Below, one piece after another: positions 8,171 through 36,079 of a DNA stretch of 64,000 nt. The notes beneath the pieces are model-generated. The model ran no database searches. It saw nothing but the letters and a program-made list of their open reading frames with translations, and was not told where the DNA came from. The stretch's first letter is position 1, and the number at the start of each line of letters is the position of its first letter. The translations under genes and the position numbers were made by a program. This stretch comes from Helicobacteraceae bacterium (GTDB lineage: Bacteria; Campylobacterota; Campylobacteria; Campylobacterales; Sulfurimonadaceae): contig WTBY01000017.1 of NCBI GenBank assembly GCA_013138865.1, forward strand, positions 62,001 through 126,000, written 5' to 3'.

Positions 8171-8290
8171 GTTGTTATTTTAGCAAAGTAAACTAAAATA
8201 CAAATAGCTATAAGTGTTTACAATATCATACTTCCATAAAGCTTTATTTTTTTATATTAATTTTTTACAATACTGATTGATTAATAATAT

Positions 8291-8893
8291 TCAATTTCTA
8301 TCAACAGCCTCTTGAATTCTTGTAAAATGAATTGATAATTTTAACAAAAACATATAAAATCCATAATTACTTAATGTAGCCATTTTACTCTCAGATTTCA
8401 ATGCTACTTCATAAAAGTAATCCCTATCAATGGATAATATATTTTCAAATAATACTATACTATCTTCTTGTATATTTGCACCCTTGGGAAGATAAAACAT
8501 ATTTGTTTTTTCTTGCTTTTTAATACTCTCAACTATACTCATAGTTCTTTCTGTATCAATACCTTTGCTTGTTAATAATTGTATAAATTTATCTAAACTA
8601 ATTAACGGAACATACGATACTTTTGGAAGAGTAGGTCTATCATTTTTAGGGTCAATATCACAACTATTAGAAACAACCATTACTTTTGCATTTTTAGAGC
8701 TTATATCAGGTAAATTAAAAAATGGTATTTCCATAACAATATCAGACTGTAATATACCGATATCAAATGTAAAATTAGATCCATATATTTTATTGATATT
8801 GTTAGGAAAATCTTTTAATTGCTCATATAATTCTTTTTGATTTTCAGGGGACAAATATTTTGGTAAATACTTTTCTATATCCTCTAATTTCAT
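8291..8893 (-). CDS. Uncharacterised protein, third gene of accessory cassette
   Basis: This 200-residue protein has no recognised family. A leading helical segment (about 1-35) is followed by QSDIVMEIPFFNLPD (about 49), then KVMVVSNSCDIDPKNDR (about 70) and VSYVPLISLDKF, then a region with YEVALKSESKMATLS. The D-I-V...PF and V-S-N-S-C-D-I motifs look like conserved cores of a small beta-rich domain; Cys78 lies in a possible active or metal site. Its ATG lies six bases after the stop of the preceding gene with no clear ribosome site, so it is probably translationally coupled. Contains the only GATC of the cassette. No function is assigned. Confidence 0.75.
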   Translation of the reverse strand: MKLEDIEKYLPKYLSPENQKELYEQLKDFPNNINKIYGSNFTFDIGILQSDIVMEIPFFNLPDISSKNAKVMVVSNSCDIDPKNDRPTLPKVSYVPLISLDKFIQLLTSKGIDTERTMSIVESIKKQEKTNMFYLPKGANIQEDSIVLFENILSIDRDYFYEVALKSESKMATLSNYGFYMFLLKLSIHFTRIQEAVDRN

Positions 8894-8899
8894 ATATTA

Positions 8900-9202
8900 T
8901 TAACTTAATAAGTCCATAATATTATCATTAATCAACTGTGCCACATCTGCATCTAGTGGTTGATTATTTTCTAATAATTTATTTGCAAATCCAATCATTG
9001 CTTCTATTTCTTCCAAATCAATATTGTCTTCATATGCGTAGTCACTATATGTTCCACTAATTATTCCAGTAGATATGTTTTGTGACGCACTTGTTAATGA
9101 TATATTTTCTGTAGCCAAGTTTAATCCACCTGAACCCATACTCACAAGTGCTGCCATTGATAAAGTAGCAGTAGTATTACTTATAAATGTTTTGTAGTCC
9201 AT
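8900..9202 (-). CDS. Small uncharacterised protein with hydrophobic segment, second gene of accessory cassette
   Basis: I place the start at 9202 (MDYKTFISNTTATLSM), giving 100 residues, because AGGA lies eight bases upstream and the ATG follows the TAA of the TIGR04255 gene by one base. An upstream in-frame ATG at 9226 lacks a ribosome site. Residues about 10-30 are hydrophobic and small (ATLSMAALVSMGSGGLNLA). The rest is acidic, with YAYEDNIDLEEIEAMIGFANKLLENN, written here in parts: YAYEDNIDLEEIEAM then IGFANKLLENN. No signal peptidase site is obvious. It could insert into or associate with membranes, but function is unknown. Confidence 0.7.
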   Translation of the reverse strand: MDYKTFISNTTATLSMAALVSMGSGGLNLATENISLTSASQNISTGIISGTYSDYAYEDNIDLEEIEAMIGFANKLLENNQPLDADVAQLINDNIMDLLS

Positions 9203-9203
9203 C

Positions 9204-9959
9204 TTATGTATCCTGATACTTTGCATTAAATTCTTTATTTACATATTCTTCTTTTAAAATATTGAAGAATTTATTTTTATTCAATAAGTGGCACTCGTTT
9301 AATATCTTTTTATAGTCATCTTCAAAATTTTCTACACTTTCCATATATGTATCTATATCGACAATAGAACCTTTTAATTGCTTATTATTAACTTTAAATG
9401 CAGAATTATTTGAAATAACAATATTATGATAAAATCCACTTTCTTGAAAGTTTCTTGAAAACTGTATCTTTTCATTCAAACCTAAATTTTCTTCTTCTTT
9501 TGAACTAACTTTATATTCTGTATTTTCAAATATATTTGACCCAAAAAAATCTGTATATCTAATAGCAAATCTTGTTACTCTATCAATTAAGGCACTTTCA
9601 AATATTTTAGAATAGATGCCTAAAATTTCTTCTTCTATGTATTCCGTCCAGCCTGGATATTCATTATGTTCAGTTTTATGAAATGCTATTGCTATTACCT
9701 TTGGACCAACTAAGATTTTTAAACTCTTAGATTCATCGTAAAATTCATAATGAGGTGCAAAGATTAAACTAGGGTCTCTATCTCTGATATCATTTGGAAT
9801 TTGAAGTACAGGTAATTTTTTAAACTTCTTATATTCTTTTGACAATAATGGATAGATAATACCAAAAACTGCCTCACCAGGGACAGAAGAAATAAATTTA
9901 ATTTCTACAACCGCAGACACTATTGGTGTTGGTTCAAGTTTTATTGGAATTTTTTGCAC
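9204..9959 (-). CDS. TIGR04255 family protein, first gene of accessory cassette
   Basis: The start is GTG at 9959, preceded by AAGGA at a good distance. The 251-residue protein shows the features I associate with the sporadically distributed TIGR04255 family: an N-terminal PTPIVSAVVEIKF, a central GPKVIAIAF, YPGWTEYIEEEI and RVTRFAIRYTDFFG. The biochemical role of that family is not established. It heads a tight three-gene operon (one-base and six-base gaps). The DNA of the whole operon nearly lacks GATC, unlike its neighbours, which suggests recent acquisition. Cytosolic, no membrane segment. Confidence 0.8.
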   Translation of the reverse strand: MQKIPIKLEPTPIVSAVVEIKFISSVPGEAVFGIIYPLLSKEYKKFKKLPVLQIPNDIRDRDPSLIFAPHYEFYDESKSLKILVGPKVIAIAFHKTEHNEYPGWTEYIEEEILGIYSKIFESALIDRVTRFAIRYTDFFGSNIFENTEYKVSSKEEENLGLNEKIQFSRNFQESGFYHNIVISNNSAFKVNNKQLKGSIVDIDTYMESVENFEDDYKKILNECHLLNKNKFFNILKEEYVNKEFNAKYQDT

Positions 9960-9977
9960 TTTTTATCCTTATTTTGT

Positions 9978-9983
9978 ATTATA
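9978..9983 (-). promoter_or_regulatory. -10 box of the accessory cassette promoter
   Basis: TATAAT on the minus strand lies 18 bases before the GTG of the TIGR04255 gene, with an AT-rich upstream stretch and no clear -35 box, as is usual for sigma70 promoters in this group. It would give a short leader with the AAGGA ribosome site. Confidence 0.5.
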
Positions 9984-10020: not shown

Positions 10021-10323
10021 TTAGTTAAAACCTTTAAACTTCTTTGCTTCATCTTTTTTGGCTTCTTGTTCTACTTGAAGTTCATCTTTATAACTTTTTA
10101 CGCCTTTAAATAGTGCGCCAAAAGATCCAAAAATGCTACTTGGGTTTTTAGGTGGTGGTGGAGTTCCAAAGCGATCATCGCCTAGTAAGTAAGCTTTTCT
10201 ATATTTTCTAGGTATTTTTTCATGTACGACTAAGTAACTAACTTCTGCTTTTATACACTTGTCCATTAAGTTATACATCTTTAACCTTTTTTTCTCTGTT
10301 GAGACTTTTTTAGCAAATTTCAT
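10021..10323 (-). CDS. Hypothetical basic protein
   Basis: This 100-residue protein is strongly basic. It has a helical N-terminal half (KKVSTEKKRLKMYNLMDKC), a central KIPRKYRKAYLLGDDRFG, a proline run (TPPPPKNPSS) and a charged helical tail (KDELQVEQEAKKDEAKKFK). No signal peptide or known domain is recognised. It is divergent from addA with a 37-base gap that must contain both promoters. GATC appears in it (GCGATCATCG), so it looks like part of the host backbone rather than the adjacent cassette. Confidence 0.65.
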   Translation of the reverse strand: MKFAKKVSTEKKRLKMYNLMDKCIKAEVSYLVVHEKIPRKYRKAYLLGDDRFGTPPPPKNPSSIFGSFGALFKGVKSYKDELQVEQEAKKDEAKKFKGFN

Positions 10324-33052: not shown

Positions 33053-34222
33053 TTAAATTCCATCTACACGAAGAAGTTTAGTTTTTCCTACCATTAAATC
33101 TGCTGTCATTTTTATACGTTTAAATACACTCTCTTGACGATACTCTAAGTTATGCTTAGCGCAAACTTCTTTTACGATCGGCTGCATAGCTTGGTATTGT
33201 GAAAGTGGAAGTTTAGGAAAAAGATGGTGTTCTACTTGGTAGTTTAGGAAACCATGTGCAAAATCAATTAGGTCTGAACCTGTATTATAGTTAACACTTC
33301 CCATAATTTGACGTAAATAGAACTCACCTTGTGACTTATGAGGTTCACTAAACTGGTAAATATCTTCTGCAGAGTGATTTGGTACAATCACTAAAAAAGA
33401 CCATGCGTTAGCTATTAAATCTGCTATTAAAATAATTAGAAATGCACTCCATACAGCTTCTAAACCTAATGGTAAGAATAGAAATGGAAGAACTATAAAG
33501 TTAACTATTCCGTAAGGAAGATAGTACTCAGTCCATAAAATATAACCATTTTTAGTAAATACACTTATATTATAGGTAGTTACCTCTGGCTCTTTTCTTT
33601 TTCTACGCTCTTTATTTTCTAAAATTCTTAAAGTATTTGGCGCATAATAAGTTATTTTCCATACTGCTGAGAATAACCATACAAATGCATATTTAAGAAA
33701 CATAGGAATTTTCGCTTGCGCTAACCAAACCATATTTTTTTCTACATTATCTGGATCATCTACTTCACCTAAGTGATAGTGGTGCATAATGTTATGCTCA
33801 TACTCCCAAGCTTCTGGTTTAATCCAGTCCAACCAGTGTATATATCTATTTATACCACCTTTTGCGTAACCTTTTTGAGTATATTTTTCAGGTATATTGG
33901 GAACTTTATCATACGCACCATGTAAAATAGGGTGAGAGACGTTTGCCCATCTTCCAACATTTCCAACGCCTATTAAAATAGCAGCGATCAGTGCAGGTAG
34001 CCAAAACTTAAACCCCATAAGACCTGATGTTGCCTCAACTGCAGTAACCGTAAAAATAAGAAAGAAACCCAAATATGTAGCTATTGAACTCCATCTTTCC
34101 ATCTTTAATACATGATTAAAATCTTCTTGCGTTGGCGCGCCTATCTTTTCTGTTATAGCTTCTATATCTATTTGAAGTTGTTCTTTGTTTACATCTTCAT
34201 ATTTAGCGTATGTATGTGACAA
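33053..34222 (-). CDS. Membrane fatty acid desaturase
   Basis: The 389-residue protein has three histidine boxes: HPILH near residue 99, HNIMHHYH near 144 and QVEHHLFPKLP near 330. It also has four or more hydrophobic segments. The last box with Gln is typical of the front-end/DesA-type group. It would insert a double bond into acyl chains of membrane lipids using oxygen and electrons from ferredoxin or cytochrome b5-like donors. The start is TTG at 34222 with AAGGA six bases upstream. It stands alone, convergent with the ArsC-like gene. Confidence 0.87.
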   Translation of the reverse strand: MSHTYAKYEDVNKEQLQIDIEAITEKIGAPTQEDFNHVLKMERWSSIATYLGFFLIFTVTAVEATSGLMGFKFWLPALIAAILIGVGNVGRWANVSHPILHGAYDKVPNIPEKYTQKGYAKGGINRYIHWLDWIKPEAWEYEHNIMHHYHLGEVDDPDNVEKNMVWLAQAKIPMFLKYAFVWLFSAVWKITYYAPNTLRILENKERRKRKEPEVTTYNISVFTKNGYILWTEYYLPYGIVNFIVLPFLFLPLGLEAVWSAFLIILIADLIANAWSFLVIVPNHSAEDIYQFSEPHKSQGEFYLRQIMGSVNYNTGSDLIDFAHGFLNYQVEHHLFPKLPLSQYQAMQPIVKEVCAKHNLEYRQESVFKRIKMTADLMVGKTKLLRVDGI

Positions 34223-34346
34223 TATTTTTCCTTAATGTACAAATTATATTTGTTATTTTTATATATTATATTTGCAATTATAGTAGACTATATTTATAAA
34301 AACATTTATTTAAGTAAAAATATTTGGAAAAAGTTAAGATTGTTAC

Positions 34347-34393
34347 AGTTAAGCTTAAAAGTAACTTTATCTAAGCTACTTTTAAGCTTAACT
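34347..34393 (+). promoter_or_regulatory. Long inverted repeat in the rplM leader
   Basis: Perfect 17-bp arms, AGTTAAGCTTAAAAGTA (34347-34363) and TACTTTTAAGCTTAACT (34377-34393), with a 13-base loop, end 41 bases before the rplM ATG. As RNA this makes a strong hairpin, a candidate for ribosomal-protein feedback or attenuation. No T-run follows, so a simple terminator is less likely. The rest of the 212-base spacer is AT-rich. Confidence 0.6.
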
Positions 34394-34434
34394 AACTATA
34401 CTGCCATCACTAATTAAATAAAAGGACAATTACG

Positions 34435-34857
34435 ATGAAATTTACAAAAATCGCAACTGCTGAGCAGATTGAACGTAAATGGGTTTTAATAGATGCAGAA
34501 GGTAAAACTTTTGGTCGTATTATTACTGAAGTAGCAACTATACTTCGTGGAAAAAACAAACCATGTTTTACTCCAAATATTGACTGTGGAGACTTTGTAG
34601 TAATTGTTAATGCTACTAAAGCAGTTTTTAAAGGTGCTGGTAAAATTGCTAATAAAGAGTATTTTTCACATTCAGGTTACTTCGGTAGTACTAAAAGTGT
34701 TAAAATGATGGACTTATTAGAAAATAATCCTGAGAAACTATTCAAACTAGCTACTCGTGGTATGCTTCCAAAGACAACTCTTGGTCGTCATATGCTTAAA
34801 AAATTAAAAATATATGCAGGTGCTGAGCATCCTCACACTGCACAACTTAGTAAGTAA
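34435..34857 (+). CDS. rplM: 50S ribosomal protein L13
   Basis: The 140-residue protein shows L13 motifs: RKWVLIDAEGKTFGRIITEV, LRGKNKPCFTPNIDCGDFVV, the YFSHSGYFG segment and RGMLPKTTLGRHMLKKLKIY followed by GAEHPH. It is an early-assembling part of the large subunit. It is ten bases upstream of rpsI, the usual pairing. AAAGGA lies nine bases before the ATG. A long inverted repeat lies in its leader. Confidence 0.99.
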   Translation: MKFTKIATAEQIERKWVLIDAEGKTFGRIITEVATILRGKNKPCFTPNIDCGDFVVIVNATKAVFKGAGKIANKEYFSHSGYFGSTKSVKMMDLLENNPEKLFKLATRGMLPKTTLGRHMLKKLKIYAGAEHPHTAQLSK

Positions 34858-34866
34858 GGATAACTG

Positions 34867-35256
34867 ATGGCAAAAATATATGCAACAGGTAAAAGAAAAG
34901 CTTCTATCGCTAAAGTTTGGTTAACTCCAGGTACTGGTACAATCACAATCAATGGTCTTTCATTAGATGCATGGTTAGGTGGACTTGAAGCTAAAAAGCT
35001 TCGTGTTAAACAACCATTAGCTCTAACTAAACAAGACACTGCAGTTGATATTGTAGCTTCTACTTTAGGTGGTGGTTTTGGTGGTCAAGCTGATGCACTA
35101 CGTCATGGTATCTCTAAAGCTCTAGTTGAGTTTGATGAGAGTTTAAGAGCTGTTCTTAAGCCTTACGGTATGCTAACTCGTGATTCACGTGTTGTTGAGC
35201 GTAAGAAACCAGGTAGAAGAAAAGCTCGTCGTTCACCTCAGTTCTCAAAACGTTAA
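34867..35256 (+). CDS. rpsI: 30S ribosomal protein S9
   Basis: The 129-residue protein matches S9: [45 protein letters not shown]-like [19 protein letters not shown] and the C-terminal RRSPQFSKR whose basic tail contacts tRNA in the P site. It is co-transcribed with rplM; AAGGA lies before the ATG. A chain of three hairpins follows the stop. Confidence 0.99.
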
Positions 35257-35262
35257 TAAGTC

Positions 35263-35365
35263 AAACTCAATTAGTAGCCAATGGCTACAATTATAGTTTA
35301 CTTAACTTCCAATCTTTGATTGTGAAGTTACCTTCATCTTTACTCTTTCGCTTTTGCGATCGAGT
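35263..35365. repeat. Chain of three hairpins (repeat family, locus 3)
   Basis: First hairpin 35263-35299: AAACT...TAGCC-aat-GGCTA...AGTTT, close to unit A of the 4.6-kb cluster. Second 35304-35329: AACTTC-CAATC-ttt-GATTG-t-GAAGTT. Third 35342-35365: ACTC...CGC-tttt-GCG...GAGT. The rest of the 331-base spacer to the GAF gene shows no gene up to the palindrome at 35555. The chain probably terminates rplM-rpsI. Confidence 0.6.
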
Positions 35366-35554
35366 AGGTTTTAAATCTTCTTTTATCTCAAAACTTCTTA
35401 AATTCTTAAAAACTATTATTGTTATAACAAAATTATTAAAAATCTAATGGGCTAATAAGTTTAGATTTGCTTTTTGAGAGCCTACTTTGATGTTTCTGTC
35501 GAGTGTCTAAGGGTGAATATCGTGTCGTCTTTTTTGAGTTAATGAAAAATTTAC

Positions 35555-35579
35555 ATTATCATAATTAATTTATGATAAT
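35555..35579. promoter_or_regulatory. Palindromic operator over the GAF-gene promoter
   Basis: Perfect 10-bp arms ATTATCATAA and TTATGATAAT with a five-base spacer. The right arm contains the likely -10 box (GATAAT), eight bases before the GAF-gene ATG. A dimeric repressor binding here would block that promoter. The binding protein is unknown. Confidence 0.5.
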
Positions 35580-35587
35580 ATTAGAGC

Positions 35588-36079
35588 ATGACTTATACAC
35601 AAAAACTTATAGAAGTTGAAAAACTAAAAGATTATTTAAAAAGTTGTTCTACTGAATGTACAGATATTTATGAAGTGCTAACAACTTCTGCTAGAGATAT
35701 TTCTAGCTCAGAGCGCGCATCAATTTACTTTTACAATAAAGAGAATAACTCACTTGAAACATATATAGCTCAAGGACTCTCTATTAAAATTCAAGTACAT
35801 GCAAATGAAAGCTTAGCTGGACTTTGTGCTACTTCCAAAAAACCCGTATTAGAAAATGATGTTGATGTCTCTTCTCATTTTAACTCTAGTGTTGATCTTG
35901 AGAATGGATTTGTAACTATTAATACCTTATGTATACCTATTCTAGATTTTCATGATAATATTTTAGGAGTTTTGCAAGTTTTAAATAAACTTCCAGATGG
36001 TTATAGTGAAACAGATGAAGAAATTATAGTAGATATTGCTAACTCAGTTGCTGAGTTTATAGCTAGAACTTCAAAATAG
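35588..36079 (+). CDS. GAF-domain protein
   Basis: The 163-residue protein is nearly all one GAF domain: LKSCSTECTDIYEVLTTSAR, SERASIYFYNKENNSLET, ESLAGLCATSKKPVLENDV, INTLCIPILDFHDNILGVLQ and VLNKLPDGYSETDEE. There is no output domain, so it probably senses a small ligand and acts through a partner. It is a single-gene unit with a palindromic operator in its promoter and a bidirectional terminator shared with rplT. Partner unknown. Confidence 0.83.
   Translation: MTYTQKLIEVEKLKDYLKSCSTECTDIYEVLTTSARDISSSERASIYFYNKENNSLETYIAQGLSIKIQVHANESLAGLCATSKKPVLENDVDVSSHFNSSVDLENGFVTINTLCIPILDFHDNILGVLQVLNKLPDGYSETDEEIIVDIANSVAEFIARTSK

What the first reader, a model, noticed from the sequence alone, without database searches (positions are those of the whole stretch)
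8281..9960. Three-gene GATC-depleted cassette led by a TIGR04255 protein: candidate undescribed defence or conflict system
Seen: three tightly spaced genes (one- and six-base gaps) share one promoter, sit between metH and addA, and contain a single GATC in about 1,680 bases and no CGATCG. metH next door has about 30 GATC in 3,430 bases. That composition break suggests recent transfer. Known: TIGR04255 proteins occur sporadically and have no established role. Inference: a TIGR04255 protein, a small hydrophobic-segment protein and an unknown Cys-containing protein, co-inherited beside a recombination nuclease gene, have the profile of a mobile defence, toxin-antitoxin or effector module.
Basis: partly seen in the sequence, partly recalled or inferred. 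Interest (0 to 1): 0.72.

Follow-up and report, generated by a model that had tools for sequence, protein, structure and literature searches.

The report
Three-gene mobile toxin cassette, swappable effector
Between two housekeeping genes of a Campylobacterota bacterium sits a three-gene cassette that travels as a unit between bacterial phyla, phages and plasmids, and whose last gene, a probable RNA-attacking toxin, is exchanged for unrelated toxin types in sister cassettes, which makes it a likely undescribed phage-defence or toxin-antitoxin system.

Summary
In detail: three adjacent minus-strand genes (gaps of 1 and 6 bases), the lowest G+C of the window, one GATC, no CGATCG. GATC alone is weak evidence, because a ribosomal-protein stretch is equally poor in it. 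What carries the case is comparative. The third protein (C) occurs in 0 of 59 relatives, yet 126 database loci (at least 8 phyla, prophages) encode it, plus isolated phages and a small circle. In 105 of 113 unique cases with enough upstream DNA, the TIGR04255 protein (A) stands before it, with a small protein (B) between. In P2-like Pseudomonas phage Dobby the trio abuts the portal gene, the published anti-phage hotspot of P2-like phages. C is predicted with high confidence to have the MazF toxin fold, but lacks the canonical catalytic residues and has its own invariant set. Most TIGR04255 loci in two surveys head the same layout, with C replaced by HEPN, PIN, NlpC-like or unknown proteins; the A tree shows repeated swaps. 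Best reading: a modular three-part toxin system (A constant regulator or sensor, B antitoxin/adaptor, C effector), probably anti-phage. Toxicity and defence are untested; A's fold and the exact logic remain open.

The parts
9204..9959 (-). gene A: TIGR04255 family protein, 251 aa; constant component of the cassette
   Evidence: NCBIfam TIGR04255 7.4e-31, 107.9 bits; PHROG 5464; AlphaFold model pLDDT 94.4, pTM 0.90; no confident PDB fold match
8900..9202 (-). gene B: 100-aa protein, hydrophobic stretch near the N-terminus, conserved C-terminal motif F...L....D......N..DLL; proposed antitoxin/adaptor
   Evidence: homologues in the same place in phages and genomes; hydrophobic N-terminal segment in 73% of 100 unique B against 23% of flanking genes
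8291..8893 (-). gene C: 200-aa MazF-fold protein with invariant Q49, D51, N76-x-C78-D79, P136, K185, R192 (R86 and R199 nearly invariant); proposed toxin/effector
   Evidence: PHROG 4575 3.5e-45; 64-sequence alignment; model pLDDT 93.6; Foldseek: leading matches MazF/MoxT toxins, probability 1.00, E from 1.7e-4, TM about 0.7 on the target
9978..9983 (-). TATAAT, -10-like element before A (consensus match only)
   Evidence: sequence
9966..9970 (-). AAGGA, probable ribosome-binding site of A
   Evidence: sequence

Best explanation
The three genes are one horizontally moving cassette, A-B-C, of a modular toxin system that most likely works by abortive infection (phage exclusion). C is the effector: a MazF-fold protein that probably attacks RNA and stops growth when free. 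B is the small partner made just before it, probably the antitoxin or adaptor that holds C in check, with a hydrophobic N-terminal stretch and a C-terminal motif as its two contact sites. A (TIGR04255) is the constant part: it probably binds B, keeps the B-C complex inactive, and loses or changes that hold when a phage product appears. That is the logic of toxin-antitoxin-chaperone systems such as CmdTAC, carried out by an unrelated protein. Shown here: gene layout, co-inheritance, mobility, folds of C and A as high-confidence models, effector swapping. Inferred: toxicity of C, neutralisation by B, sensing by A, protection against phage.
For: Fixed order: in 105 of 113 unique C loci with at least 1150 nt upstream, A lies upstream, in 104 of them within 500 nt, mostly 280-370 nt, the room of B; B was also found by profile in most. 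The A and C distance matrices agree (r = 0.74, 0 of 2000 permutations reach it), though shared host ancestry contributes. Mobility: C absent from 59 relatives; TIGR04255 in only 12 of 397 Campylobacterota and 35 of 369 genomes of the class of an Aggregatibacter genome; C in 46 loci of predicted viral contigs, the trio in phages Dobby and VW-6S and a 15-kb Phocaeicola circle. Position: next to the portal gene in P2-like phage Dobby, matching the anti-phage hotspot gpA-gpQ of PMC9122126; next to the CI repressor in VW-6S; just upstream of terminase genes in L006/L007. Toxin side: C has the MazF fold; sister cassettes carry HEPN (PDB HEPN protein 4.9e-7; PADLOC HEPN 4.4e-5) and PIN (1.4e-8) proteins in C's place. 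Swaps: 11 effector changes on the A tree where 6 is the least possible; an A next to HEPN and an A next to MazF-type C are supported sisters (96/82). Antitoxin side: B is replaced by HTH proteins in one sister type (HTH_3 5.7e-7 in L230, weaker in four others).
Against: No experiment. The MazF relation of C is structural only: no Pfam match, profile comparison with PemK 2%, and by comparison with known MazF sequences (from knowledge) the catalytic Arg and Thr/Ser positions are not conserved, so RNase activity is uncertain. A shows no SecB relation (0.3%; no SecB among the 50 PDB matches listed); its weak matches are TBP-like and others, so a chaperone role is a guess. PADLOC has no significant model for A or C. 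Pfam families near the chromosomal copies include integrases and restriction genes but also many ordinary genes, and I had no control set. B could be a membrane or exported protein, and its hydrophobic stretch is absent or weak in several sister types. Some TIGR04255 loci were ambiguous in layout (L215, L220, L229, L233).
Confidence: 0.5

Rival explanations
1. Sensor-effector defence without an antitoxin: A recognises a phage product and switches on C directly, B being a membrane-anchored part of the effector (C docks on B at the membrane).
For: B has an N-terminal hydrophobic stretch in 73% of 100 unique proteins; sister effectors include an NlpC/P60-looking protein (by eye, no family match), which need not be an RNase.
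Against: The B gene sits directly before a MazF-, HEPN- or PIN-type protein, the usual antitoxin-toxin arrangement; B is an HTH protein in one sister type, which points to the cytoplasm; the hydrophobic stretch is short (15-residue windows).
Confidence: 0.2
2. Selfish addiction module: a three-part toxin-antitoxin cassette that stabilises prophages and plasmids, with no role in phage exclusion.
For: Carriage on phages and a small circle, toxin-like folds; nothing here separates addiction from defence.
Against: Placement in the P2-like hotspot reported to be rich in anti-phage systems and beside a CI repressor; a copy standing alone among core genes in this genome; the extra constant gene A is not needed for plain addiction.
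Confidence: 0.2
3. A is a TBP-like transcription regulator of a stress-response operon whose C is a catalytically dead MazF-fold binding protein; no conflict role.
For: Weak Foldseek matches of A to TBP and viral TBP-like proteins; canonical MazF catalytic positions not conserved in C.
Against: Sporadic, phage-borne distribution across phyla and swapping of C for HEPN and PIN proteins fit a conflict system, not a housekeeping response; TM-scores of the TBP matches are about 0.2-0.3.
Confidence: 0.07

Closest known systems
Toxin-antitoxin-chaperone (TAC) systems, e.g. CmdTAC (PMC11618068) and M. tuberculosis TAC (PMC5105189)
   Same: Three genes; according to these papers a conserved type of chaperone with toxin and antitoxin families that vary, several toxins being endoribonucleases; CmdTAC is anti-phage.
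   Different: The constant part is TIGR04255, not SecB-like; B's hydrophobic stretch is N-terminal, whereas the chaperone-addiction sequence is C-terminal; here A comes first and the toxin last. The function is not tested here.
MazEF/PemK type II toxin-antitoxin modules (PF02452)
   Same: C has the MazF fold and is preceded by a small partner gene.
   Different: No PemK profile match, canonical catalytic positions not conserved, N-terminal helices added, a nearly constant third gene A.
Three-gene P2-hotspot system active against P1 in Rousset et al. 2022 (PMC9122126; called Rst_3HP in defence databases, from memory)
   Same: Three genes without clear domains, in the same kind of P2-like hotspot where the Dobby trio lies.
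   Different: Its sequences could not be examined. No PADLOC model matches our A or C significantly, and one blastn test of a Pasteurellaceae trio found nothing in E. coli genomes. Identity is not excluded.
HEPN-based toxin and defence modules (HEPN superfamily, PMC3710099)
   Same: Sister cassettes carry HEPN-type proteins in C's place.
   Different: Here they are linked to TIGR04255 and a B gene; the window's own C is not HEPN.

Membership tests
TIGR04255 protein family | NCBIfam model score above its curated cut-off | tested here: met
   107.9 bits against 30, residues 8-241 on model 2-249 of 252
MazF/PemK toxins (PF02452) | Pfam PemK_toxin match | tested here: not met
   0 families for C at E up to 1; profile-profile 2%
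MazF/PemK toxins (PF02452) | SH3-like MazF fold | tested here: met
   Foldseek of a pLDDT 93.6 model: the 31 best matches are all MazF-type toxins, probability 1.00, TM on target 0.61-0.75
MazF/PemK toxins (PF02452) | catalytic Arg (RPVL) and Thr/Ser positions | tested here: not met
   positions judged by aligning the RPVLxxxN and xxAIT strands by eye: variable in C; invariant residues lie elsewhere
MazF/PemK toxins (PF02452) | endoribonuclease activity and growth arrest | not testable with these tools
   needs expression
Toxin-antitoxin-chaperone systems | SecB-like chaperone | tested here: not met
   A against SecB profile 0.3%; no SecB among the 50 listed PDB fold matches
Toxin-antitoxin-chaperone systems | antitoxin with C-terminal chaperone-addiction sequence | tested here: not met
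   B's hydrophobic stretch is N-terminal, median start about residue 13
Toxin-antitoxin-chaperone systems | chaperone-dependent neutralisation of the toxin | not testable with these tools
   needs co-expression
Known anti-phage systems in PADLOC-DB 2.0.0 | match of A, B or C to a defence model | tested here: not met
   none for the window trio at E up to 1; only stray hits near 1e-3 in one or two of 72 A and 64 C homologues
Rst_3HP (Rousset et al. 2022) | homology to the three tested proteins | not tested
   accessions are in a supplement that could not be opened; whether PADLOC 2.0.0 holds its models was not verified

The most novel reading that the evidence does not exclude
TIGR04255 is the constant core of an undescribed superfamily of three-part phage-defence systems: one conserved regulator licenses unrelated toxins (MazF-fold, HEPN, PIN, peptidase-like and unknown types) through an exchangeable adaptor, and the MazF-fold effectors form a new family with its own active site (Gln-x-Asp and Asn-x-Cys-Asp).
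Probability: 0.4. Interest if true: 0.85.

Novelty: new variant of a known kind. Interest (0 to 1): 0.7.

Why it matters
TIGR04255 proteins are widespread but sporadic, and no paper in the searched library names them. If the reading holds, they get a role: the common part of a three-gene conflict system with interchangeable effectors, comparable in logic to toxin-antitoxin-chaperone defence but built on a different protein. It would add a MazF-fold effector family with a new invariant residue set, and it makes clear predictions that can be tested with a handful of plasmids.

Tried and rejected
GATC depletion as proof of transfer: another stretch of the window is equally low. Empty-site comparison at metH-addA: the two genes are not neighbours in 29 relatives within 1.5 kb and the 100-aa neighbour gene is an orphan among 60 genomes, so insertion boundaries cannot be drawn. 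Direct repeats or tRNA at the borders: none convincing. A as a SecB chaperone: rejected by profile and fold. C as an ordinary PemK family member: rejected by Pfam and profile. Defence-island enrichment from Pfam of 226 flanking genes: restriction, integrase, resolvase and TniB families occur, but there is no control, so I do not lean on it. E. coli copies: one distant blastn query, no match. Whole-genome composition statistics were not possible.

Full report
1. Observation. A TATAAT and an AAGGA precede A. One GATC and no CGATCG lie in 8281-9960, against 30 GATC in metH. Across the window the mean per 1680 bases is 9.2, and 1 is the minimum, but the ribosomal-protein stretch at 34001-35900 also has one. 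The trio's own base composition predicts about four. The G+C of 0.267 is the lowest of the window. So the composition break is real, but only suggestive of transfer.

2. What the proteins are. A is a clear TIGR04255 member (107.9 bits, cut-off 30) and matches PHROG 5464; C matches PHROG 4575 at 3.5e-45; both PHROGs are of unknown function. Pfam and PADLOC give nothing usable for the three. AlphaFold models from alignments of 64 C and 72 A sequences are of high confidence (pLDDT 93.6 and 94.4). The leading PDB matches of C are all MazF-type mRNA interferases (probability 1.00, E from 1.7e-4, TM about 0.7 on the target). C adds N-terminal helices (about residues 1-45). Sequence profiles do not link C to PemK (2%), although the one aligned stretch puts C's ILSN on the PemK strand RPALIIS. 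The MazF catalytic Arg and Thr/Ser (known from the literature, placed here by eye on the aligned strands) are not conserved; instead Q49, D51, N76, C78, D79, P136, K185 and R192 are invariant in 64 sequences. A has no confident relative in the PDB; the best are weak TBP-, AdoMetDC- and Rep-like matches with TM about 0.3, and viral models again include TBP-like proteins. B has an N-terminal hydrophobic stretch (73% of 100 unique B reach the threshold against 23% of 226 flanking genes) and a conserved C-terminal motif.

3. The trio is a unit. C occurs in only one of 60 genomes compared, the genome itself. Elsewhere, a scan of 84,980 species genomes with the C alignment gave 87 relatives, of which 80 loci were kept, and IMG/VR gave 46 loci. 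In 105 of 113 unique C with at least 1150 nt of upstream sequence, A lies upstream, in 104 of them within 500 nt, leaving room for B. Of the eight exceptions, at least five (L033, L050, L061, L071, L074) carry an unrecognised protein of 209-295 aa in A's place. A and C distances correlate (r = 0.74, 0 of 2000 permutations); common host descent contributes to this figure. Record titles include Campylobacterota, Bacteroidota, Verrucomicrobiota, Desulfobacterota, Pseudomonadota, Hydrogenedentota, Riflebacteria, Cloacimonadota and Ignavibacteria members.

4. It travels on phages. Dobby, a P2-like (Peduoviridae) Pseudomonas phage, carries A-B-C directly beside its portal gene. Rousset et al. (PMC9122126) describe the region between gpA and the portal gene gpQ of E. 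coli P2-like phages as a hotspot of anti-phage systems. In VW-6S the trio follows the CI repressor. In L006 and L007 it lies just upstream of terminase genes. A 15-kb Phocaeicola circle with an integrase-like gene and a relaxase-like gene (my reading of the open frames) carries it too.

5. Effector swapping. TIGR04255 is found in 12 of 397 Campylobacterota genomes and 35 of 369 genomes of the class of an Aggregatibacter genome. Reading the neighbours shows the three-gene layout in the great majority, with different third genes: the MazF-type C (L140, L231, L235, L238); diverged TCDI/CDL proteins (the set L138, L239, L236: 96.8% by profile comparison to C; and a type with an HTH-containing B, linked to that set at 85% and to C itself only at 13%); HEPN proteins; a PIN protein (1.4e-8); an NlpC/P60-looking protein (by eye only); and a type with a WDGY-containing B and an unknown C. 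Four loci were ambiguous (L215, L220, L229, L233). On the A tree the effector types need 11 changes where 6 is the least; shuffled labels need 31. Supported close relatives carry different effectors: L237 (HEPN) with L238 (MazF-type), 96/82; L010 (HEPN) with the window's group, 99/97. So A stays while B and C change.

6. How it most likely works. Shown: unit structure, mobility, predicted fold of C, effector swapping. Inferred: C, like the HEPN and PIN proteins found in its place, is a toxin that probably acts on RNA; B, made just before it, is the cognate antitoxin or adaptor; A is the common regulator. The closest worked-out logic is CmdTAC (PMC11618068): a phage capsid protein titrates the chaperone, the antitoxin is degraded, the toxin is freed. 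Chaperone-addiction sequences can be moved between antitoxin families (PMC5105189), which would explain how one kind of A can serve many B-C pairs. But A is not SecB-like and B's hydrophobic stretch is N-terminal, so this is not a TAC system by membership; it may work like one.

7. Novelty. No paper in the library names TIGR04255, and targeted searches for a modular system of this make-up returned nothing relevant; subscription papers and preprints are largely outside that library. The three-gene anti-P1 system in Rousset et al. could be a relative and was not comparable. I therefore call it a new variant of a known kind (three-part toxin-antitoxin-like defence), not categorically new.

Noticed in passing
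window 1-64000: CGATCG is strongly over-represented (50 copies against 5.1 expected from base frequencies, 29.9 by a maximal-order Markov estimate).
   Followed up: partly
window 10021-10323 (minus): A 100-aa gene between the trio and addA has no match in 59 relatives and no family; an orphan that may have come with the cassette or be lineage-specific.
   Followed up: partly
window 34001-35900: A second GATC-poor stretch (1 in 1680 bases) with near-average G+C, over ribosomal-protein genes.
   Followed up: no
G000 (8 places): The host genome holds eight ordinary PemK-family matches besides this cassette.
   Followed up: no
L144-L148, L223-L226, L240-L244: A sister cassette type with a WDGY-containing B and an unknown C; no family known for the proteins tested.
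   Followed up: no
L011 (675-3495): A TIGR04255 cassette with an NlpC/P60-looking third gene lies beside a Vsr-like endonuclease gene (by eye) in a relative (G029) that carries two different TIGR04255 cassettes.
   Followed up: no
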